The notes under the pieces are model-generated. The model was not told the origin of the DNA, did not search any database, and saw only the letters and a list, made by a program, of their open reading frames with translations. A DNA stretch of 64,000 nt from Nitrosospira multiformis (lineage in GTDB: Bacteria > Pseudomonadota > Gammaproteobacteria > Burkholderiales > Nitrosomonadaceae), in the NCBI RefSeq assembly GCF_003050865.1, contig NZ_QAOK01000001.1:186001-250000 (forward strand), given 5' to 3'. Positions 52,353 to 62,881 of the stretch are shown piece by piece. Positions within the stretch are counted from its first letter, which is position 1. Each line of letters begins with the position of its first letter. The translations under genes were made by a program, and so were the position numbers.

Positions 52353-55295
52353 TTAAAGAGATTTCTTCTGGTGTAGAAACTCTATTATCTTGGTCGCTGT
52401 GACGGCGGGACTAAAGAGGTAGCCCTGCATCTCCTCACATTCGAGGCTTCGCAAAAGCTCGGCTTGCTCAATCGTTTCCACCCCCTCGGCAACAACACGC
52501 AAATGCAACGAATGTGCCAGAGATATGATTCCGGAAACAATGGTGAGACTGTCTCGATTGATATTCATATCGCTGATGAAAGCGCGATCAATTTTCAGGA
52601 CATTGACGGGCAATTTGGCGATATAACTGAGCGAAGAATAACCGGTACCGAAATCGTCTATCGCAAGCTCGATACCCATATCCTGGATGAGATTGAGCTT
52701 CTCGATATTGGCTTTGATATCGTGCATGATTACACTTTCCGTGATCTCAAGCTGGAACGCAGCTTGATCTCCCGCGTCGCTTACCACATTTGCCACCATA
52801 TCGACAAAATCCTTCTGCCGTAACTGAACGGGAGAAACATTGATAGCAATTCTCGGTGGATTTAAACTCATGGCTTTCCATTTATTTGCATCCGATATCG
52901 CTTTGCTCAGCGCCCAGCGGCCTGCGTCAAGAATCATTCCTGTTTCTTCAAGTAAGGGAATGAAGTGCAGTGGTGAAAGTACCATAGCGCTTTCCGGATC
53001 GTGCCAGCGCATCAGGGCCTCGAGCCCGCTTATTTGTCCACTCTTCAAATCAACCTTGGGTTGGTAGTACAGCACCAATTGTTCCTGCTCCAACGCCTGA
53101 CGCAGCTTGATCTCGAGTTTCAGTTTTTCTTTAACCCGTGCATGAAATTCGGGAGCATAAAACAAATGCTTGTCGGAAGAATGCTTGGCCTTCTTTAGCG
53201 CTGTTTCAGCATTTCTCAAGAGCGTATCAGTATCCAGGCCGTCGCTAGGAAAGAACGAAGCTCCCACCCTGGCGGAAACCCACAGTTCCTGTCCATTAAT
53301 TAAAAAGGGCTCGTTCTTAACCTCGAACAGAAGCTTCTCTAGCATATGGACGATGTCGATGCTTTCCTCTTCATGTTTTCTGGCGATAGCAAAATAATCG
53401 GCGGAAAGATGGGCCAGAATGTCTGCTTCTGAAAGCAGTTGCTTCAGCCGCTTCGCAAGTTGGCGGAGTAGACTGTCGCCCGCTCCATGGCCGAACGATT
53501 CATTAATACTGCTGAACCGTTCGATGTCCAGGACAATTACGGAAAGCATCTCGTGCCCGGAAGAAACCATCTTGATCCGCTGATTAACCCGGTCTAGAAA
53601 TAATGCCCGGTTCGGAAGCTCGGTCACAGCGTCGAAGAAAGCCAGATAATTGATGCGCTCCTCTTTTTTCAGGTGATCCATTGCAAACGAAATATCGCCT
53701 GCCATTTCTATTAGCAAAGCAATTTCCTCCTCGTCGAAAAACCCTGTCTCGGGAGTATAGAGAGTCAGAGTGCCAACGAGTTGCCCATCGAGAACCAAGG
53801 GCAAGATCGCCATGGAAAGATAATCGTGAGCAAGCGCTGCGTTATGCAAACCCTCCATGCGCTTATCGGCAATGAGATCATTGCAAATGAACGGCTTGAG
53901 ATGTGTGATTAAATCCTCTACCAGTGGAGCTCCTTCCGGCGCACTCATCAGAGATAGGTTGAGTTGGAACAGCTCATCATTTCCTTGCCCCATCTTAGCC
54001 ACTGGTGTAATTATTCTCGTATTTCCCCCCAGCATTCCGATCCAAGCGAAAGCGAATCCACCGTGAACGACTGCAATACGGCATGCCTCATTGAAAAGCT
54101 CCTGTATTTCACGGACACGCACAATGGCTGTATTGATCCCACTTAACACGCTGTATAAGCGGTTGAGCCGGACTACTCTCGCTTCATATTCCTTGCGCTG
54201 AGCGATCTCCGCTGTTAACGCCGCAGTACGTTCCCCCACCAACTTTTCCATATGTTCATGCAATCGGGCACGCTCCAGCGCAACACTTACCTGCTGGCCA
54301 ATCCCGTGGAATGTATCCAACTCATTCTCCCTGAACTGATCCTGTTCCAGGCCCAGGAGATTCATCACGCCCTGGTTCTTGCTGCCACTCCACATCGGTA
54401 TGGTGATATGGTGGCAAGAACCATTGCCTCCGCTTGAGAAGAGGCGCTCGCAGTTTAAAATTTTAGGAGTATTGCCGAGCTCCCCGGTGAGCAAAAGCCG
54501 CAGGCAATTGCATGATATGTCCAAGCCATCAGCACTTACTGATGCGGGTACGTTTCGTGAGCCTGCCAAACTCAGACCGTCGGTATTCCATAAATAAAGC
54601 CATCCCGCCTGGACTCCCGGCAACATCATGGCGTACTCCAGCGCTTTTTCGCTGACCTCGCGCTCGGTTGCTGCCTGGTTCAAGCCTTCCGCCATTCGAT
54701 ACAGCCCATTGAGCAAGCGATTCGAGTGCGTCAGCTCACGTTGTCGCGTATTCAGTTCAGCGTTGAGGCGAACCGCATCCTCATAAACTGAAATCAATAG
54801 ATCCACGATCTGCTGCCGCTCACTGGTGATGAAATGTTTTTGCCCGCCCAGATAAATCTGCATTCCCATTTGCATCTTCTGACTCTTGCGCAGCTCATGG
54901 CTCATCAGCAGATACTCGATGCGATCAAGAAGATACCGGTCGTCATATGGCTTGCGGATAAAATTGTCGGCCCCCGATTCCAATCCCTGGATGATATCCT
55001 TGACATCCGCCAGCGAGGTAAGCAGGATCACTGGAATCTTCTTGAGTTGTGCGTCCCGCTTGATTTCGCCGCATAGCGCAAACCCATTCATTTCCGGCAT
55101 CATCACATCACTGATAATCAATGTCGGGTTGTGCTGCCGCGCCCTCGAGAGGGCCTGCTTGCCATCGCCTGCAGTGGTAACTTTGTAGCCGTTTTCCTCC
55201 AGCAGATACTTCAGTTTTTCCGCTTGCGTGGGACTGTCCTCTGCGATGAGAATCTCGACTTTCCGGGCATCGTGGATTGAAATATCATGCGCCAA
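52353..55295 (-). CDS. response regulator with GAF, degenerate GGDEF and intact EAL domains
   Basis: A 980-aa predicted c-di-GMP enzyme and output of the Wsp-like operon. Order: REC (about 12-130, phospho-acceptor D63), GAF (about 195-345), coiled segment, second GAF (about 385-540), GGDEF (about 550-710), EAL (about 725-975). The GGDEF motif is replaced by SADYF (631-635), so cyclase activity is unlikely. In the EAL domain the expected catalytic and metal residues are in place: E759 of EAL, N819, E850, D880-D881, K901, E937, Q957. It should therefore break down c-di-GMP. It starts at a TTG with GAGGAG 9 bases upstream, overlapping cheB by 11 bp, so it is translated with it. Confidence 0.92.
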   Translation of the reverse strand: MAHDISIHDARKVEILIAEDSPTQAEKLKYLLEENGYKVTTAGDGKQALSRARQHNPTLIISDVMMPEMNGFALCGEIKRDAQLKKIPVILLTSLADVKDIIQGLESGADNFIRKPYDDRYLLDRIEYLLMSHELRKSQKMQMGMQIYLGGQKHFITSERQQIVDLLISVYEDAVRLNAELNTRQRELTHSNRLLNGLYRMAEGLNQAATEREVSEKALEYAMMLPGVQAGWLYLWNTDGLSLAGSRNVPASVSADGLDISCNCLRLLLTGELGNTPKILNCERLFSSGGNGSCHHITIPMWSGSKNQGVMNLLGLEQDQFRENELDTFHGIGQQVSVALERARLHEHMEKLVGERTAALTAEIAQRKEYEARVVRLNRLYSVLSGINTAIVRVREIQELFNEACRIAVVHGGFAFAWIGMLGGNTRIITPVAKMGQGNDELFQLNLSLMSAPEGAPLVEDLITHLKPFICNDLIADKRMEGLHNAALAHDYLSMAILPLVLDGQLVGTLTLYTPETGFFDEEEIALLIEMAGDISFAMDHLKKEERINYLAFFDAVTELPNRALFLDRVNQRIKMVSSGHEMLSVIVLDIERFSSINESFGHGAGDSLLRQLAKRLKQLLSEADILAHLSADYFAIARKHEEESIDIVHMLEKLLFEVKNEPFLINGQELWVSARVGASFFPSDGLDTDTLLRNAETALKKAKHSSDKHLFYAPEFHARVKEKLKLEIKLRQALEQEQLVLYYQPKVDLKSGQISGLEALMRWHDPESAMVLSPLHFIPLLEETGMILDAGRWALSKAISDANKWKAMSLNPPRIAINVSPVQLRQKDFVDMVANVVSDAGDQAAFQLEITESVIMHDIKANIEKLNLIQDMGIELAIDDFGTGYSSLSYIAKLPVNVLKIDRAFISDMNINRDSLTIVSGIISLAHSLHLRVVAEGVETIEQAELLRSLECEEMQGYLFSPAVTATKIIEFLHQKKSL

Positions 55296-56352
55296 GCTTA
55301 ATTTCTCCTCGTTCTGCCACCATATTCGCTAGCGCTGCGGCAATCTTTTCCAGAGGCAAGACCATGGTCGCCACACCTAACCTGATCGCCTCGCCCGCCA
55401 TACCGTGGACGACCGAACTTTCCTTGTCTTGTGCGAAAGTAATCGCGCCTTTCTCCTTCAGAAGGCGTAACTCGTCGGCACCATCACGGCCCATCCCCGT
55501 CAATAGGCCAGCAACGGCATCATGACCGTAGACTCTGGCAACCGACCTAAAAAGATATGAAATTGAGGGTCTTGATCCATACTCTGGCTCATCTTTGGTC
55601 AAAACGATCTCCCCTCGGTTCTCCACCTTCATCTGGTATTCATCGGGTGCCATATAAACATGCCCTGGCAGGGGCAACTCACCCTGCCTTGCAATATGAA
55701 CGGGGAGATTGGATGAGTTCTTTAGCCATTGGACAAATCCTTCCATGAATCCCGCGGTCATATGCTGAACGATTAGAATAGGCACAGGAAAATGCTTCGG
55801 GAGTGACGAAAGAATCGCCTCTAGTGCAGGCGGGCCGCCCGTTGAAGCACCTACAACGACAATTCTTGTTTGCGCCACACGGTTAAGCAGGGGGGCACGT
55901 ACAGAAAGGGAGGCCGGAGAAGCTCCTCGCATGCGCGCCCAACGACGAACTACCTTTACTTCTGCCATCAGTTTTACGACCTCTATCATCTTCCGAGCTG
56001 TCGCCTCGTGATCCGGATGACCGATGCCTGCCGGCCGCGGGAGCACTGCCAATGCCCCTGCATCGATCGCATCAAATGTGATCCCAACCTCTGCCGGATC
56101 CGTACTGCCGCTCACGATGACAATGGGAGTCGGCTGTGTCTCCATGATCAGCTGTGTGGCCGCCACTCCATTCAGCTTCGGCATGTGAATATCCATCGTG
56201 ATTACGTCAGGCCGATGGTTGCGCAAGGCATCGATTGCTTCTTCTCCGTCGCCGGCGGTCGCAATAACAGTGATATCAGGATCGGAATTGAGTATGTAAA
56301 TGAGGAACTCTCGCACTACCGGTGAATCTTCCACTACCAGGACGTTTATCAT
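55285..56352 (-). CDS. cheB: chemotaxis response regulator / protein-glutamate methylesterase (CheB, WspF-like)
   Basis: A 355-aa CheB: REC domain (about 1-120) with phosphorylation site D54 (TMDIHM), linker, and methylesterase domain (about 160-350). The catalytic Ser is in VGASTGGPP, His in IVQHMTAGF and Asp in GMGRDGADEL. It removes methyl groups from the MCP, opposing CheR. In Wsp this position is WspF, whose loss turns the pathway on. It lies 10 bp after cheA and overlaps the downstream output gene. Confidence 0.95.
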   Translation of the reverse strand: MINVLVVEDSPVVREFLIYILNSDPDITVIATAGDGEEAIDALRNHRPDVITMDIHMPKLNGVAATQLIMETQPTPIVIVSGSTDPAEVGITFDAIDAGALAVLPRPAGIGHPDHEATARKMIEVVKLMAEVKVVRRWARMRGASPASLSVRAPLLNRVAQTRIVVVGASTGGPPALEAILSSLPKHFPVPILIVQHMTAGFMEGFVQWLKNSSNLPVHIARQGELPLPGHVYMAPDEYQMKVENRGEIVLTKDEPEYGSRPSISYLFRSVARVYGHDAVAGLLTGMGRDGADELRLLKEKGAITFAQDKESSVVHGMAGEAIRLGVATMVLPLEKIAAALANMVAERGEIKLGA

Positions 56353-56362
56353 GGGAGAGAAC

Positions 56363-58717
56363 TCACGGATTAATGCTGCTGATGCTGATCAGGCGTCGAG
56401 TCGCCTCCAGCAAGTTGCTTTGGTCAAAGCGACTCTTCACGATATATGCATTCGCTCCCACATCGATGCCTCGCTCCCGGTGATCACGTGAATCCAATGC
56501 CGTTACCAATACCACCGGCAGCGCCACCAACTGCTTATCAGCACGTATCCTGGCTGTCAGGGCAAAGCCGTCCATTCGCGGCATTTCAACATCAGAGACT
56601 ACCAAGCTGTAGGCGCCCGTTTTAAGGGCGGTATAGCCCTCCACTCCATCCACAGCTGTAGTCACACGATAACCTGCCGATTCCAGGATATGTTTAAGCA
56701 GCGTCCGAGCAGTGATGGAATCGTCCACCACTAAAATAGAGTGCTTGCTTGATGCTCCCTGCTTCTCAGCCGATGAGTCCTGAGTAGAGATGAATGTAGC
56801 CGAGGATGCTTTCACAGCCGATTTCAACAGATCAGGTACGTTAAGCACCGGAACCACTCGCCCGGTTCCCAGCATGCATACACCTGCGACGTTTCTTACC
56901 CGCTTCAGTGGCCGAAGGAGTGCTTTTATTACTATCTCTTGCTCCCCGAGAACTTCTTCCACGAGAAATGCAACACGACCAAGACCTGAACTGAGAACGA
57001 TCCCTCGCAAATAGTGCGTGGGTTCCATTTCTGCCGAATTGAGAGCCAGTTCCAGTATGTCACTCAACCTGACCAGAGAAACAGGTTGTTCATCTACCAG
57101 AATGGTTTCTCGATTTTTCACTGTCTGAATTTCGTTTTTGGCGATTCGGACTACTCGCTCAACGCTGCTTGAAGGAATAACAAAAAGCTGTCCTCCGGCA
57201 TGAACCAGAACTCCCCAAGTATTTGTTAGCGTTAACGGCAGTAAGATATGGAAAGCAGTTCCGGTATCAGTACTTGATTTGACCTTGATGCTGCCGCCTA
57301 AAGCTTCAACCTTTTCACGTACAATCGCGAGTCCCAGGCCGCGTCCAGAGATATCGGTGATGAGGGGACTGGTGGTCACACCAGATCTAAAAATAAGCGC
57401 AAGCAATTCCGACTCACCCAGTTGCTCCATCTCCTCCTCAGACATTACGCCAAGCTTGTGAGCGGCAGCTTTCAATTTACCGACATTGATTCCGGCCCCA
57501 TCATCGGCTACACATATCTCAGCCTTACCGCTATCGCTTTGCGAGCACGCGAAGGTGATTCTTCCCGACGAAGGCTTACCTCTAGCTAACCGGGCTGCCG
57601 GCTGCTCAATACCGTGATCGATGCAATTACGCACCAGATGGACCAAAGGGTCTTTCATCTCTTCCAAAACATGCCGATCAATTTCCACCTCGCCGCCACT
57701 CACCACCAGCTCCAGGCTCTTGCCCTGTTCGCGGGCCAGCTCGCGGGAGAATCGGGGCAGAATATCCAACAGCGTCGAGAAAGGCAGTAATTGCATTTCT
57801 TTGACGTCCTGAATCAGACAATCGGTCATGCCAGCAAGTGCGCGTTGGTCTTGTTCGATAGTCCGCTGCAATCTTACTAGCCGCTCCTCAAGCGCTTTCA
57901 TTTGAAGCGGCTCCCCATCCAGGTATTTGAGCAGCTTCGGGAGCCCATGTTGTCCTCGGAAGGGGCTATCCTTGAGGCTGGATGTCAACTCCCGATCAAT
58001 AATGCGGACTGCCGACTGGATTTGCAGGCGCTGCTTCTTCCATGCGGCAAGTGCCGTGGTGATTTCGCCTAGCTCCTTGGCCCGTTGTCGCGCTGTCAGG
58101 CAGGGCAGCAACAATTCCTCAACCTGACGCAGAACCTTTTCGAGTTTTACGGTAGGCACTCTGATTGTTGCAGATGCATGGCTTGGAGTAGAGGTCCGCA
58201 AATATGCACTTACGTCAGCACGGGTTGCGGATGATTCATCAGGGGGAAGCAAAGATAAAGGTGATACAGCCTGCGATAATGAGGAGCCCGTACGACCTTC
58301 TTTTATGGGACTTTTCAGCGTTTCATCGAGCTGTCGGGTTATTGTAGTCAACAACGGCTTTTGCCGTTCAGCCATGCTGCCCTCTCCTGAAACGAGCGTC
58401 CCTAGGGCATCGACCGTCCCAAGCAGCCGATCGATGAGCGATGACGATACGGCAAGGCTTTTATCTTTCAGTGCGGAGAATATATTTTCCAGAGAACGGC
58501 AGGTCTCCTCGACTTGGGTAAAATTGACTGCTCGTGCTGCACCTTTGAGACTGTGTGCGCACCGCAACATGTTCTCAATGATATCGAACGCCGGCGTATC
58601 TACAGATTTTCCCTCCAGGGCGAGCAGTCCCGACGATATATCCTTCAGGTGGGCCTCTGCCTCGATGCGAAACATTGCAAGGAGCCTTTCCAAAAGCACA
58701 TCCCTTTTGTCAGGCAT
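56363..58717 (-). CDS. cheA: hybrid CheA histidine kinase with C-terminal receiver (WspE-like)
   Basis: A 784-aa hybrid kinase. Hpt domain (about 1-115) with phospho-accepting H55 in CAHSLKGAAR; dimerisation and linker (about 190-340); HATPase (about 345-490) with HLVRNCIDHGIE as the N box, DDGAGIN and GRGLGLAIV as G boxes; CheW-like domain (about 495-630); REC domain (about 665-780) with the acceptor Asp in VSDVEMP. This CheA-REC arrangement matches WspE rather than canonical CheA, which ends with CheW. It overlaps the MCP gene end by 8 bp. Confidence 0.94.
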   Translation of the reverse strand: MPDKRDVLLERLLAMFRIEAEAHLKDISSGLLALEGKSVDTPAFDIIENMLRCAHSLKGAARAVNFTQVEETCRSLENIFSALKDKSLAVSSSLIDRLLGTVDALGTLVSGEGSMAERQKPLLTTITRQLDETLKSPIKEGRTGSSLSQAVSPLSLLPPDESSATRADVSAYLRTSTPSHASATIRVPTVKLEKVLRQVEELLLPCLTARQRAKELGEITTALAAWKKQRLQIQSAVRIIDRELTSSLKDSPFRGQHGLPKLLKYLDGEPLQMKALEERLVRLQRTIEQDQRALAGMTDCLIQDVKEMQLLPFSTLLDILPRFSRELAREQGKSLELVVSGGEVEIDRHVLEEMKDPLVHLVRNCIDHGIEQPAARLARGKPSSGRITFACSQSDSGKAEICVADDGAGINVGKLKAAAHKLGVMSEEEMEQLGESELLALIFRSGVTTSPLITDISGRGLGLAIVREKVEALGGSIKVKSSTDTGTAFHILLPLTLTNTWGVLVHAGGQLFVIPSSSVERVVRIAKNEIQTVKNRETILVDEQPVSLVRLSDILELALNSAEMEPTHYLRGIVLSSGLGRVAFLVEEVLGEQEIVIKALLRPLKRVRNVAGVCMLGTGRVVPVLNVPDLLKSAVKASSATFISTQDSSAEKQGASSKHSILVVDDSITARTLLKHILESAGYRVTTAVDGVEGYTALKTGAYSLVVSDVEMPRMDGFALTARIRADKQLVALPVVLVTALDSRDHRERGIDVGANAYIVKSRFDQSNLLEATRRLISISSINP

Positions 58718-60203
58718 GGACTTTTCCCGCTTCCTCTACGAAACGGTCTTTCTTGCTGCCTACGAGGACACTCAATTTATTCCCCATCTCATATAAGCCT
58801 TGTGCCGCTGATTCTGCCTGCCTGGTACCTGCCACGTTCTGTTCGCTCGCCTGCTGGATATTAGTCATGGCCATCGCCACCTGATCCATGCCGACCATTT
58901 GTTGCTTGCTTGATGCCGCAATTTGGGTAGCTGCTTGCGCTGCCTCACTGATGCTGGTGGATAGTAGGCGGATTGCTTCATCAGTCTCGGTGGATTGCCT
59001 GACCCCCGCCTCTACCGCTTTATTGCCCTGCTCAGTGGCGAGTACCGCAGCATTAGTCGCTTTCTGAATATCACCCAGAATGCCTCGCACCTGGGCAGTG
59101 GCTTGTCTGGATTGCTCCGCCAGGCTTCTTATCTCCCGAGCAACTACGCCAAAACTCTTACCTTGTTCCCCAGCCCGGGTCGCCTCAATAGCGGCATTCA
59201 CGGCCAACAAATTGGATTGCTCAGCCAAGTCGTTGACTGTGGCAATGATCTCGGCGATGGCATGCCCCTGCTTGGAGAGCTGCATAATGCTCTCAGCTAT
59301 GGATTCCATCTGCTCCTGGATCCGATTCATTCCACTAATAGCCTCCTCCACCGATTTGCGTCCAGCCTCGGAGATATTGGAAGCTTTCTGCGCGCTGTCT
59401 GATACATATTTAGCTTTCTGGCTCGTAGTCAATGCGGTTTGCTTGACCTCTTCCACGGTGGCGGTTGTCTCGCTTACTGCGGCTGCGGTCTCGGCTGCGC
59501 CAGCGGCAACCTGGGAAGTGGTGGAAAGAATCTCTGCTGAAGACGACGCAAGTTGGGCGATGCTCTCCCGGAGCTGTCCGGTAATCATGCGGCTCAGGCG
59601 AATGCCGATTGTTAGTCCAACTAAAACAGTAAATAAAGAAACAGACACCAATGCAGTGGTATAAGACCTCACTTTCTCCATGGCTTCAGTTTTTCTACTT
59701 TCCAGAATTGCAGATTGTTTCTCATAGAAACGCTTGGCCTTATCTATAAATGCAAGGCTGAGCGGACGGAACGTATTAATCACGAAGGCGAGCGCTTCCT
59801 CGGGTTTTTGCTCAAACGAGAGCCGGACGGCTTGTTGCTGGGCCTCCTCCAATTGTTGGTGCAGGGATTCGAGCTCGTTGAGTAGGCTATCCCCCTTGTT
59901 TCCACTCATTAGCTGTCGAATTTTTTCGAGGATTTGCTTGAACTGGCGATCGTTGTCTTGCAGGAGCACCTGGTTGGTCTTCTGCAGCTCCGGGTAAAGC
60001 AAAATACCCCGAACATAGGTTTGTTGCGCAAGTCCCGCAATCCGCAATTCATTCGCGCTCTCCATCAGCCGCTCGTCTACGCGAAGGAAATGATCGTACG
60101 TCGCCTGTGTCTGGCCAAGTGCATAGAATGCGACAGCGGTGGAGAGTGCAAGGAGCGCCAGTATGATGGAATACCCTCCAATTATCTTTTCACTGATGGT
60201 CAT
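58710..60203 (-). CDS. methyl-accepting chemotaxis protein (WspA-like)
   Basis: A 497-aa receptor. Two membrane segments (about 9-29 and 186-206) enclose a periplasmic region of about 155 residues, predicted four-helix bundle. The cytoplasmic signalling domain has the hairpin tip AIEATRAGEQGKSFGVVAREIRSLAEQS (tip at about 345-375), with E-rich methylation helices on both sides and no clear CheR-docking pentapeptide at the C terminus. No HAMP domain signature is obvious between residues 207 and 260. As the only receptor in the operon it is the sensor; its ligand is unknown. In Wsp the input is surface contact. Confidence 0.93.
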   Translation of the reverse strand: MTISEKIIGGYSIILALLALSTAVAFYALGQTQATYDHFLRVDERLMESANELRIAGLAQQTYVRGILLYPELQKTNQVLLQDNDRQFKQILEKIRQLMSGNKGDSLLNELESLHQQLEEAQQQAVRLSFEQKPEEALAFVINTFRPLSLAFIDKAKRFYEKQSAILESRKTEAMEKVRSYTTALVSVSLFTVLVGLTIGIRLSRMITGQLRESIAQLASSSAEILSTTSQVAAGAAETAAAVSETTATVEEVKQTALTTSQKAKYVSDSAQKASNISEAGRKSVEEAISGMNRIQEQMESIAESIMQLSKQGHAIAEIIATVNDLAEQSNLLAVNAAIEATRAGEQGKSFGVVAREIRSLAEQSRQATAQVRGILGDIQKATNAAVLATEQGNKAVEAGVRQSTETDEAIRLLSTSISEAAQAATQIAASSKQQMVGMDQVAMAMTNIQQASEQNVAGTRQAESAAQGLYEMGNKLSVLVGSKKDRFVEEAGKVHA

Positions 60204-60267
60204 GCTGTCCTTTCAAAACTTCGTTTCGTCATTTAAATTCAGTGTCTTCACCCATTTCGATACTTCT

Positions 60268-60906
60268 CTACTCGGCTACTTGCTCATCTACAACGATGCT
60301 TTCATCCATGAGAAGATTTTCCGCATCAAGAACCACTAGTCGCTCAGAGGTTATTCCCTTGAAGTATTTCTTACGAATGCCCATAGGAGTGGGTAAAGAT
60401 GACTGAATGTCGATTGCCAAGATAGACCGGGCGCCAAGGACTTCGTCCACCAGAATGCCGAACGTCATTTTTCCCGCCTGCAGTACGATAACTTTGTTGC
60501 GTCCACGCAGCTCCTTCTCTGGCACTTCGAAAAACTTCTTCAGGTCAATGACCGGCAGAATCTCCCCGCGCAGGGTAACAATGCCGCGAATAAAGCCAGG
60601 GGTGCAGGGCAGCGGTGTAATGTCCTCAACCTCGGCGACCTGAGTGACATAGCACGATTCGAGGGCGTAGCGTTCACAACCAAGAATAAATTCCACGATT
60701 TCAATGTCTTCATTCCGTCCCTCTTGAGCCGGTAATTCCTGAGCCAGGGCTAATGCCCTCAATTGCAAGATCTGCTGAATTTTTTCATTGGAAGGCACCC
60801 AAGTGCTGTCCACTGTTGCACGAGGAGAATTCTGGTTCTGCTCGAGCTCGAGAGAATTTCCGGAAACCGCTTTCCTTTTTTGAAACCCTAAGGTTCTAGT
60901 TATCAT
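60268..60906 (-). CDS. CheW-like scaffold protein (WspD-like)
   Basis: A 212-aa CheW with an N-terminal extension of about 60 residues. The CheW fold (about 65-200) includes VEFILGCERYALESCYVTQVAEV, TPLPCTPGFIRGIVTLRGEILPVIDLKKFF and the closing LDAENLL. It links the MCP to CheA. Its start overlaps the preceding cheR by 11 bp. It is the second of two CheW genes in the operon, the same doubling as WspB and WspD. Confidence 0.92.
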   Translation of the reverse strand: MITRTLGFQKRKAVSGNSLELEQNQNSPRATVDSTWVPSNEKIQQILQLRALALAQELPAQEGRNEDIEIVEFILGCERYALESCYVTQVAEVEDITPLPCTPGFIRGIVTLRGEILPVIDLKKFFEVPEKELRGRNKVIVLQAGKMTFGILVDEVLGARSILAIDIQSSLPTPMGIRKKYFKGITSERLVVLDAENLLMDESIVVDEQVAE

Positions 60907-62401
60907 GTGATGCTCTACTCTTTATTTCCTGATGATTGAGTGAATCGCATATTCTTATAGAGGTAATGAAATGAGTGAGATTGCCGGCGGTCAGGCCGCC
61001 TGAGTCCGGGAGAATGTCGTTGGATGAATATCCATTCAACAGCGATAGTGCATTGTCAAAATGACGTTCTGCTTCCTGGCTTTTGCCCTGCGTCAGGCAG
61101 AGGCTACCCAAGGCAAAATGGGCAAGCACAAGACCAGGATCAAGATATAGCGTATTCATCAGGCACCGCATTGCTTCCTTGGCCTGCCCCAGCTCCTGGT
61201 GAATCGTTGCCAGGAGATAGTAAGCCGCAGGGTTCAGTTTGTTAGCGGCAATTGCTTCCTTACACTGCTTTACAGCCTTGGTGAGGTCGCCTCGATCGGC
61301 ATAGCGACGAGCTTCGTGATAAAGCGTATTGGACCGCTCTTGATTCGCTGATTGGTTTGCAACATCTTGCGCACTTGTTAGTTGAGTGAAGGGGCTTGAT
61401 GCCACCGGCAATATTTGCGGTTCCATGCTTTCGAGCGAAAGGGGCGTTTCCCAGCCCTGCAGACTGGAGGGCGGCGCCGAAGCTGCCTTGTATAAAGCAT
61501 CCGATGACGGACCAAAGGAGAAGTAATTGCCATTTCCATGCACGTCGTGACTGTCAATCTTCTGATAGAGGCCAGTTCCGGAAACGGTATGAAGTCGGAA
61601 TTGCGGAAACGACTCGCTAGACATTTCCACCGGACTCACAATGAGCCATCCATGGTCGACTAGAGATCGATGAAAGCCCTGTCCAATCCTTTTAACTGCC
61701 TGGGAGCTGAAATACATCAGGACATTTCGGCAGAAGATGACGTCCACGGCGCGGGTGCCATTGGCCTGCGATGCATACACATCCTCGGCCAGATTTAGAT
61801 TGGAGAACGTTACTCTTTTACGGATATGCGGCCCTATCTCGAATAGGCCGTTTTTTTTCCGTTTAAAGTAACGCTCTTTAATCCAACCCGGGGTCGCCCG
61901 AAAAGCCCACTCCCTATATAAGCCCTCGGCTGCTCGATCCAGGAATACCGGATTGATGTCTGTTGCAAGGATTGTCGCATTCCATTCCTCCTCATGCTTC
62001 TTGAACAATCGATCAAGGAGTATGGCAATCGAATAGGGTTCTTCGCCCGTGCAACAGCCCGCACTCCAAATGCGCAGTTGGCGATTGTTTTCTTTGCATT
62101 TCCGTATCAGTTCCGGAAGAATACCTTGTTCAAGTACGTCCAGGCATTTCTGCTCCCGGAAGAAGTAGGTCTCCCCGACAGTAAGGCGGCAAGCAAGTAT
62201 GTCGATCTGTCTGCGGGTCAGGGAAGTGGAAAGGAGGTAACGGGCAGCTGTTTCGGTGTCCGGCATGTCAAGCTCCGGTGCGGCAGCCGCAATTGCGCGC
62301 TCGAGGTCACCCCAACGCTTTTGCGGATAATACAAGCCCATCTTCATCGCTATTAAATCACTTAGCTGCGAGACCAGCACATAAGGAAGGGTGATTTGCA
62401 T
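60896..62401 (-). CDS. cheR: CheR-type methyltransferase with TPR domain (WspC-like)
   Basis: A 501-aa protein. The N-terminal CheR helices (about 1-75), then the SAM-binding methyltransferase domain with VGETYFFREQ (about 78), WSAGCCTGEEPYSIA (about 118) and FCRNVLMYF (about 225), and from about 365 TPR repeats (HEARRYADRGDLTKAVKQCKEAI and two more). It methylates receptor glutamates. The C-terminal TPR region is a feature of WspC. It starts 3 bp after the first cheW and overlaps the second cheW by 11 bp. Confidence 0.94.
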   Translation of the reverse strand: MQITLPYVLVSQLSDLIAMKMGLYYPQKRWGDLERAIAAAAPELDMPDTETAARYLLSTSLTRRQIDILACRLTVGETYFFREQKCLDVLEQGILPELIRKCKENNRQLRIWSAGCCTGEEPYSIAILLDRLFKKHEEEWNATILATDINPVFLDRAAEGLYREWAFRATPGWIKERYFKRKKNGLFEIGPHIRKRVTFSNLNLAEDVYASQANGTRAVDVIFCRNVLMYFSSQAVKRIGQGFHRSLVDHGWLIVSPVEMSSESFPQFRLHTVSGTGLYQKIDSHDVHGNGNYFSFGPSSDALYKAASAPPSSLQGWETPLSLESMEPQILPVASSPFTQLTSAQDVANQSANQERSNTLYHEARRYADRGDLTKAVKQCKEAIAANKLNPAAYYLLATIHQELGQAKEAMRCLMNTLYLDPGLVLAHFALGSLCLTQGKSQEAERHFDNALSLLNGYSSNDILPDSGGLTAGNLTHFITSIRICDSLNHQEIKSRASHDN

Positions 62402-62404
62402 GCC

Positions 62405-62881
62405 CTATGAGGTACTAAGTGCCAAATCCAAGGACTTTTCTTCTTCTAATGAAAGCAATTCGCCAAGATTCTGGATAAGGATCAATCCATCCTGAAATTT
62501 GATGACTCCCCTTAAGTACTTGAGGGGAGGAAAGAATTCATCTATTGGAACCACACATTGTTCCAGACATTCCGCAACTCCCATCACTGAATTTACCGCC
62601 AGCCCCACAAGACGGGTCGTCGTATGGGCGAAAATCAGCCAGTCAGTCAGCAAAATTTCACGCTTTGGGAGATCAAACCGTTGACGGATGTTCATAATAG
62701 GGACAACTTTGCCGCGAAGATTAACTACGCCGAGCACAATTTCCGGCGCCCCGGGTAGCGGCGTTATATAAACCATGCGTGCGACACTCTCCACCGCAGG
62801 CAAATGCAAGGAGTACCGCTGATCATCCAGGAAAAAAACCAAATAATGATTTCCGGCCCTTACTGTGGTATCAAACTTCAT
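62405..62881 (-). CDS. CheW-like scaffold protein (WspB-like), first gene of the operon
   Basis: A 158-aa single-domain CheW. Features are HYLVFFLDDQRYSLHLPAVESVARM, TPLPGAPEIVLGVVNLRGKVVPIMNIRQRF and VIKFQDGLILIQNLGELLS near the end. It is the promoter-proximal gene of the seven-gene minus-strand operon, with a large open region upstream (62882-63680). It has no N-terminal extension, in contrast to the second CheW. Confidence 0.93.
   Translation of the reverse strand: MKFDTTVRAGNHYLVFFLDDQRYSLHLPAVESVARMVYITPLPGAPEIVLGVVNLRGKVVPIMNIRQRFDLPKREILLTDWLIFAHTTTRLVGLAVNSVMGVAECLEQCVVPIDEFFPPLKYLRGVIKFQDGLILIQNLGELLSLEEEKSLDLALSTS

What the first reader, a model, noticed from the sequence alone, without database searches (positions are those of the whole stretch)
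52353..62881. Wsp-like surface-sensing operon whose output is predicted to degrade, not make, c-di-GMP
Seen: seven overlapping or tightly spaced minus-strand genes, CheW, CheR-TPR, CheW, MCP, CheA-REC, CheB, then REC-GAF-GAF-GGDEF-EAL. Known: the Pseudomonas wsp operon has the same parts (WspA-F), with WspR (REC-GGDEF) as output. Here the GGDEF motif is SADYF (631-635), while the EAL residues E759, N819, E850, D880/D881, K901, E937 and Q957 are all present. Inference: receptor signalling would lower rather than raise c-di-GMP, or the degenerate GGDEF acts as a GTP sensor that stimulates the EAL domain. This would reverse the logic of Wsp.
Basis: partly seen in the sequence, partly recalled or inferred. 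Interest (0 to 1): 0.78.

Follow-up and report, generated by a model that had tools for sequence, protein, structure and literature searches.

The report
Chemosensory operon ending in c-di-GMP degrader
A soil ammonia-oxidising bacterium carries a chemotaxis-like sensing operon whose last gene looks built to destroy, not make, the bacterial signal c-di-GMP; the arrangement is conserved in relatives but is not a version of the well-known Wsp system.

Summary
Seven minus-strand genes (62881 to 52353) encode CheW, CheR-TPR, CheW, MCP, CheA-REC, CheB and REC-GAF-GAF-GGDEF-EAL; the GGDEF motif is SADYF and the named EAL residues are present. The organism is Nitrosospira multiformis-like. The order is complete in 10 of 10 Nitrosospira/Nitrosovibrio loci and recurs in other families of the order. 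In 23 operon outputs and 19 other close homologues GG[DE]EF occurs in 0 of 42, six EAL residues in 42 of 42, two more in 41 of 41 that reach them. So the loss is old. Two putative guanine-contact residues are kept in 42 of 42, which suits but does not prove a GTP-sensing GGDEF.

CheA and CheB trees and gene order place the system outside the Wsp-layout clade, among chemosensory operons with varied outputs: not Wsp reversed. Nothing shows surface sensing, and sequence cannot say whether phosphorylation switches the hydrolase on or off.

It is the only chemosensory system found in this genome, which has flagellar genes. Precedents exist: two REC-GGDEF-EAL cases in a 2012 census, and Pch, a CheA-stimulated hydrolase. 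New variant of a known kind; moderate interest.

The parts
62405..62881 (-). CheW adaptor 1 (158 aa)
   Evidence: ORF; Pfam CheW
60896..62401 (-). CheR methyltransferase fused to TPR repeats (501 aa)
   Evidence: Pfam CheR and TPR
60268..60906 (-). CheW adaptor 2 with N-terminal extension (212 aa)
58710..60203 (-). chemoreceptor: two hydrophobic stretches (about 6-32 and 181-204), 4HB_MCP sensor, MCP signalling domain (497 aa); the only MCP found in the genome
56363..58717 (-). CheA-REC hybrid kinase (784 aa); His55 and REC Asp709 in 23 of 23 operons with this output
55285..56352 (-). CheB methylesterase with REC (355 aa)
52353..55295 (-). output REC-GAF-GAF-GGDEF(degenerate)-EAL (980 aa, listed start TTG)
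54912..55256 (-). REC domain of the output, residues 14-128; E19, D20, D63, K115 in 23 of 23
53676..54113 (-). second GAF domain, residues 395-540
   Evidence: model
53175..53642 (-). GGDEF domain, residues 552-707, degenerate motif
53391..53405 (-). SADYF in place of GGDEF, residues 631-635
52407..53105 (-). EAL domain, residues 731-963, catalytic residues intact

Best explanation
This is a complete, methylation-adapting chemosensory pathway of the 'alternative cellular functions' type whose output is a c-di-GMP phosphodiesterase. A membrane receptor with a four-helix-bundle periplasmic domain controls CheA through two CheW adaptors. CheR-TPR and CheB set the adaptation. CheA phosphorylates the REC domain (Asp63) of the 980-residue output. 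That change passes along GAF domains and long helices to a GGDEF domain that can no longer make c-di-GMP but may still bind GTP, and on to an intact EAL domain that hydrolyses c-di-GMP. Most likely phosphorylation and GTP both raise hydrolysis, so kinase-on would lower c-di-GMP. Shown here by sequence: the anatomy, the retained catalytic and phospho-accepting residues, the lost cyclase motif, the conserved operon, and its place outside the Wsp-layout clade. Inferred: the phosphotransfer, hydrolase activity, GTP binding, the sign of control and the stimulus.
For: Domains. E759, N819, E850, D880, D881, K901 in 42 of 42, and E937, Q957 in 41 of 41 homologues that reach them. The EAL domain of the model matches solved phosphodiesterases (MorA 4rni, TM by target 0.94; MucR 5m1t 0.93; PdeA 3u2e 0.93). 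GG[DE]EF 0 of 42 and Glu at motif position 4 in 0 of 42, while N598 and D607 are 42 of 42. Output REC E19, D20, D63, K115 and CheA His55 in 23 of 23 operons. Operon order conserved. Purifying selection on the output. Precedents: Pch of P. aeruginosa, a GAF-PAS-degenerate GGDEF-EAL hydrolase for which CheA phosphorylation is needed to keep c-di-GMP low (PMC3861689, passages); GTP raises hydrolysis through degenerate GGDEF domains in FimX (PMC8846402, passages) and CC3396 (PMC7288161, passages).
Against: No assay exists, and retained residues do not prove activity. The sign of REC control is unknown. In the sample chosen by CheA only 10 of 14 order relatives and 2 of 9 class relatives with CheA identity of 43% or more show this output; the others carry kinase-type outputs, end at contig edges, or show no REC output in the stretch seen. 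One GGDEF-EAL protein at 46% identity over that part (in L059) and seven more distant ones keep GG[DE]EF. D590, a putative metal ligand, is Asn in 6 of 42, so GTP binding may differ among members.
Confidence: 0.68

Rival explanations
1. It is a true Wsp surface-sensing operon whose WspR was replaced by a hydrolase, so that surface contact lowers c-di-GMP.
For: Same seven kinds of parts; WspA also has a 4HB_MCP_1 sensor (PMC8846402, passages).
Against: Wsp-layout operons form a separate CheA clade of 14 rows at 100/100 and a CheB clade of 13 rows at 100; in the CheA tree the window sits in another clade of 35 rows at 100/98, with MCP next to CheA. The gene-order label changes once on the CheA tree (rows without a scored order not counted). 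No named Wsp protein was in the trees.
Confidence: 0.08
2. Phosphorylation inhibits the hydrolase, so that receptor activation of CheA raises c-di-GMP and the net logic matches Wsp.
For: The sign of REC control cannot be read from sequence; the GAF domains could gate either way (inference).
Against: Pch, the closest tested chemosensory hydrolase that I found, is stimulated by CheA phosphorylation (PMC3861689, passages), though it has no REC domain.
Confidence: 0.22
3. The GGDEF domain is only a structural linker, with no GTP sensing.
For: Motif positions 1, 2 and 4 vary, and no Arg stands at the I-site position in 22 of 22 operon members with a letter there (5 of 19 other homologues keep it).
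Against: N598 and D607 are invariant and motif position 3 is Asp in 38 and Asn in 4 of 42, more than a mere linker needs.
Confidence: 0.4
4. The system is the organism's flagellar chemotaxis pathway in disguise, acting on the motor through an unlinked CheY.
For: It is the only MCP/CheA/CheW set found in a genome with flagellar genes; FliM starts with a sequence resembling the CheY-binding peptide (motif recalled).
Against: No cheY, cheZ or flagellar gene in the operon; CheZ not found (where the control passed the cut-off in 1 of 14 genomes). The CheY model's cut-off was also passed in only 1 of 14 control genomes, so CheY absence is not shown.
Confidence: 0.12

Closest known systems
Wsp system of Pseudomonas and Betaproteobacteria (WspA-F with WspR or WspH)
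   Same: Two CheW, CheR-TPR, MCP with 4HB sensor, CheA-REC, CheB and a REC output in one operon; drives c-di-GMP in Pseudomonas.
   Different: Gene order, separate CheA and CheB clades, and an output with degenerate GGDEF and intact EAL instead of active GGDEF. The survey of 794 wsp clusters reports only WspR or WspH outputs (PMC8552884, abstract and section 6).
CheR-TPR 'alternative cellular functions' chemosensory clusters
   Same: CheR-TPR with a multidomain REC output; the 2012 census counted two REC outputs with both GGDEF and EAL and one with EAL (PMC3447774, passages).
   Different: The passages seen do not say whether the GGDEF is degenerate; whether this species is among the two is unknown, because the supplement could not be read.
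Pch of P. aeruginosa
   Same: GAF/PAS-degenerate GGDEF-EAL hydrolase whose action depends on CheA phosphorylation (PMC3861689, passages).
   Different: Pch lacks a REC domain and works with the flagellar chemotaxis CheA; here a REC domain and operon linkage would make phosphotransfer direct (inferred).
CC3396 (taken as PdeA, recalled) and FimX
   Same: Degenerate GGDEF beside EAL, hydrolysis stimulated by GTP (passages); the EAL of PdeA matches the model.
   Different: No chemosensory operon mentioned in the passages seen; motifs differ (FimX GDSIF versus SADYF).

Membership tests
Wsp system | The set of parts WspA-F plus a REC output in one operon | tested here: met
Wsp system | wspA-wspF synteny (MCP first), the criterion of PMC8552884 | tested here: not met
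   order is CheW-CheR-CheW-MCP-CheA-CheB-output
Wsp system | CheA and CheB fall in the Wsp clade | tested here: not met
   no named Wsp reference was available, the clade is recognised by gene order and REC-GGEEF output
Wsp system | Output is WspR (active REC-GGDEF) or WspH | tested here: not met
Wsp system | Responds to surfaces | not testable with these tools
   no phenotype data
Alternative-cellular-function chemosensory system with CheR-TPR | CheR-TPR and a multidomain REC output in a full signalling operon | tested here: met
   criterion from PMC3447774 passages; the class-specific HMMs were not run
EAL c-di-GMP phosphodiesterase | Conserved catalytic residues of the EAL domain | tested here: met
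   which residues are catalytic is recalled
EAL c-di-GMP phosphodiesterase | Hydrolysis of c-di-GMP | not testable with these tools
   needs an assay
Diguanylate cyclase | GG[DE]EF active site | tested here: not met
   SADYF; 0 of 42 close homologues
GTP-sensing degenerate GGDEF (CC3396/FimX type) | Lost cyclase motif with retained guanine-contact residues | tested here: met
   D344 of PleD as guanine contact is from PMC7288161 (passages), its equivalence to D607 and the Asn contact are recalled, not aligned here
GTP-sensing degenerate GGDEF (CC3396/FimX type) | GTP binding raises EAL activity | not testable with these tools
   needs an assay

The most novel reading that the evidence does not exclude
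In Nitrosospira this is the sole chemosensory array of a flagellated cell, and the cell has swapped CheY-to-motor signalling for adaptive, receptor-methylation-tuned destruction of c-di-GMP: a chemotaxis-like system that steers the swim/settle decision of an ammonia oxidiser through a GTP-gated hydrolase, with an unknown non-PilZ effector.
Probability: 0.15. Interest if true: 0.75.

Novelty: new variant of a known kind. Interest (0 to 1): 0.5.

Why it matters
In the surface-sensing table of the 2022 review passage that I saw (PMC8846402), every listed output is a cyclase. A conserved group with a hydrolase as direct REC output would show that adaptive chemosensory arrays can drive c-di-GMP down as well as up, and that outputs (hydrolase, hybrid kinase, cyclase, bifunctional) are exchanged while the array core stays. 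In this Nitrosospira genome it is the only such array found, so one gene removal would test what it does for attachment and motility of a soil nitrifier.

Tried and rejected
Recent loss of the GGDEF site in this strain: rejected, 0 of 42 close homologues keep it. A wider look at all GGDEF-EAL ORFs in the loci I held gives 42 without and 1 with GG[DE]EF at 45% identity or more over that part, and 2 without and 7 with it below 42%; so the degenerate state marks a subfamily, not every relative. An internal deletion in the window's output gene, suggested by long match spans: rejected, the extra span is upstream (REC of cheA), and the output ORFs are 980-991 aa in 9 of 10 Nitrosospira/Nitrosovibrio loci (L042 reads 1131 aa because its ORF opens further upstream). 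Degenerate GGDEF being the norm in this genome: rejected, 12 of 14 GGDEF domains are GG[DE]EF and 8 of 10 GGDEF-EAL hybrids are intact; the other exception is L176.

Single-sequence structure model: useless, mean pLDDT 36.6. Promoter and terminator scans found fewer sites than the shuffles' means (7 against 11.3; 8 against 11.4), so nothing is claimed. Plasmid searches found no record over 60% identity. First residue counts were shifted by one position by my own error; only the corrected counts are used. A check for cheB in the short flanks of the 19 other homologues found none, but it also missed 9 of 10 known operon members, so it is not used. Whether print describes this operon: the listings of searches (20 of 24 papers listed; 15 of 16; 12 of 17; 3 of 3; 12 of 19; 20 of 76; 1 of 1; 8 of 8) showed none; subscription papers and all supplements were out of reach.
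Full report
What is there. The window matches Nitrosospira multiformis: the output protein is 99% and 98% identical to those of strains Nl18 and Nl7. Seven minus-strand genes run from 62881 to 52353 with gaps (negative: overlaps) of 3, -11, 64, -8, 10 and -11 bases. Pfam domains are CheW, CheR-TPR, CheW, 4HB_MCP-MCPsignal, Hpt-HATPase-CheW-REC, REC-CheB and REC-GAF-GAF-GGDEF-EAL.

Conservation of the operon. All seven genes occur in the same order in 10 of 10 Nitrosospira/Nitrosovibrio loci, L034-L043; the eleventh locus (L044, a cyanobacterial MAG) has GGDEF-EAL hits only. Eight of the 20 hold all seven genes in this order (L045, L046, L048, L050-L054; the output of L045 is cut by its contig end). 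L047 and L049 hold the later part, with extra GGDEF genes between cheA and cheB. L059 has a kinase output. The other nine hold output-like or REC-GAF genes without a visible complete operon. The ten genomes with this output belong to eight families other than the window's. These stretches were chosen by similarity to the output, so they are biased towards it. The search by CheA is less biased. Of 14 order relatives with CheA identity of 43% or more, 10 carry this output, three carry a REC kinase output (G132, G099, G032) and one ends at a contig edge (G140). Of nine class relatives at that identity, two carry it (L124, L125); the others show kinase outputs, contig ends or no REC output in the stretch seen.

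The output protein. SADYF replaces GGDEF in the window. For the GAF-GGDEF-EAL part I compared 23 operon proteins with 19 other homologues at 42-50% identity, the best hit per genome among the loci after dropping 10 loci that repeat operon members. The genomic context of 7 of those 19 was seen and none directly follows a cheB there; the context of the other 12 was not examined, and L016 lies a few genes downstream of a related operon (L059). Three bifunctional proteins at 35-36% (L140, L150, L162) were set apart as intact controls. GG[DE]EF occurs in 0 of 42, and Glu at motif position 4 in 0 of 42. E759, N819, E850, D880, D881 and K901 are present in 42 of 42; E937 and Q957 in 41 of 41 (L045 is cut). 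The degenerate state is thus old. N598 and D607 are kept in 42 of 42; motif position 3 is Asp in 38 and Asn in 4; D590 is Asp in 36 and Asn in 6; no Arg stands at the I-site in 22 of 22 operon members with a letter there, while 5 of 19 others keep it. PMC7288161 (passages) names D344 of PleD as a guanine contact; that it corresponds to D607, and that the Asn is a second contact, is recalled and was not aligned here.

Controls against this. Over the GGDEF-EAL part alone, among all ORFs in held loci, 42 lack and 1 keeps GG[DE]EF at 45% identity or more (the exception is a 1263-residue open frame in L059 at 46%); below 42% identity 2 lack and 7 keep it. So the degenerate state marks a subfamily. 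Lower hits outside the held loci were not tallied. In the window's own genome 12 of 14 GGDEF domains are intact, so the loss is not a general habit of this organism.

Selection and structure. dN/dS of the output gene is 0.059, 0.133 and 0.134 against L034, L035 and L036; dS to L036 is near 1, close to saturation. A model from 29 sequences has mean pLDDT 79.8 and pTM 0.38, so domains are credible but their packing is not. It shows REC, a helix, GAF, a helix at residues 323-393, GAF, a helix at 522-553, GGDEF and EAL. Its best matches are MorA, DosP, PA0575 and PA0861 structures, at high rmsd over several domains (11.8 A for MorA), and isolated EAL domains of MorA, BifA, MucR and PdeA at TM 0.90-0.94 by target.

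Signalling residues. CheA His55 and REC Asp709, and output REC E19, D20, D63 and K115, are present in 23 of 23 operons. The receptor has two hydrophobic stretches that fit membrane helices. Its sensor half aligns over its full length in the 10 Nitrosospira/Nitrosovibrio loci and in L046; one receptor of L047 aligns from residue 88; in L045, L048-L054 and the second receptor of L047 only the part from about residue 170-205 onward aligns. So the stimulus probably differs between lineages.

Not Wsp. A CheA tree of 60 rows (L130 left out as a fragment; rooted on the long row L153 for drawing only) places 14 rows in one clade at 100/100: 12 have the scored Wsp layout with MCP first, two could not be scored, and 13 have a REC-GGEEF output. 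The window lies in a different clade of 35 rows at 100/98. The gene-order label needs one change on that tree (unscored rows not counted). Eleven further rows with the window's gene order lie outside both groups, or unplaced near them, and three of them (L131, L132, L134) carry REC-GGEEF outputs, so this gene order as such does not imply a hydrolase. A quick CheB tree of 58 rows gives the same split: 13 Wsp-layout rows at 100, with the window's group of 34 at only 82. Named Wsp proteins were not available, so 'Wsp layout' is recognised by gene order and output, as in PMC8552884. In the window's CheA clade outputs vary: 23 rows with the degenerate GGDEF-EAL; five with REC-HisKA-HATPase kinases (L059, L126, L127, L136, L138); three with intact GGDEF plus EAL and a second REC; four with no output seen. 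The hydrolase label needs two changes on each tree. On the CheA tree the one row inside it without the label, L137, ends at its contig edge. L056 from the same genome (G140) carries a cheB fragment and a REC-GAF-PAS-kinase; if the two contigs join, this genome has a kinase output. So the array core is stable while its output is exchanged.

Genome context. One MCP gene, three genes with CheW domains (all in this operon), two flagellin-domain genes, FliM, no CheZ (the model passed its cut-off in 1 of 14 control genomes) and no PilZ (over the cut-off in 5 of 14 controls) were found in a genome of 99.54% completeness. No CheY passed the NCBIfam cut-off, but that cut-off too was passed in only 1 of 14 control genomes, so this says little. 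Five of 5 genomes of another genus in the family gave no match to the output at E 1e-100.

Literature. PMC3447774 (passages) reports CheR-TPR clusters with some 20 GGDEF outputs, one EAL and two with both. PMC8552884 (abstract, section 6) reports that all 794 wsp clusters have WspR or WspH. PMC3861689 (passages) reports that Pch, with GAF, PAS and degenerate GGDEF besides EAL, depends on CheA, and that a CheA phosphotransfer mutant has raised c-di-GMP in P. aeruginosa. PMC8846402 (passages) lists cyclases as the outputs in its surface-sensing table and says chemosensory systems that modulate c-di-GMP belong to the ACF or type IV pilus classes. I found no paper describing this operon in the listings of searches, which showed part of the matching papers in five of the eight.

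Verdict. A real, conserved, ACF-type chemosensory operon with a predicted c-di-GMP hydrolase as direct output. The prediction of hydrolysis is strong by sequence, GTP sensing is plausible, the sign of control and the stimulus are open, and the Wsp label should be dropped.

Noticed in passing
L047:8038-11006 and L049:6932-14280: Between cheA and cheB of otherwise similar operons sit extra GGDEF genes, including PAS-GGDEF genes with intact GG[DE]EF, so cyclase and hydrolase may share one operon.
   Followed up: partly
L149:8766-10934: A more distant chemosensory operon has a REC-PAS-GAF-HD_5 output, an HD-GYP-like domain (name recalled), possibly another hydrolase-type output.
   Followed up: partly
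L140, L150, L162: A clade with the same gene order ends in a REC protein with intact GGDEF, EAL and a second REC, predicted bifunctional.
   Followed up: partly
L181:14560-15537: FliM begins MRDDFLSREEVDALL, resembling the CheY-binding peptide (motif recalled), though no CheY partner was identified.
   Followed up: no
whole genome G000: 14 GGDEF-domain proteins but no PilZ protein found, so the c-di-GMP effectors are unknown.
   Followed up: no
L124:13595-16867: Next to the hydrolase-type output lies a second REC-GAF-PAS-GAF-kinase-REC protein with the same N-terminal layout.
   Followed up: no
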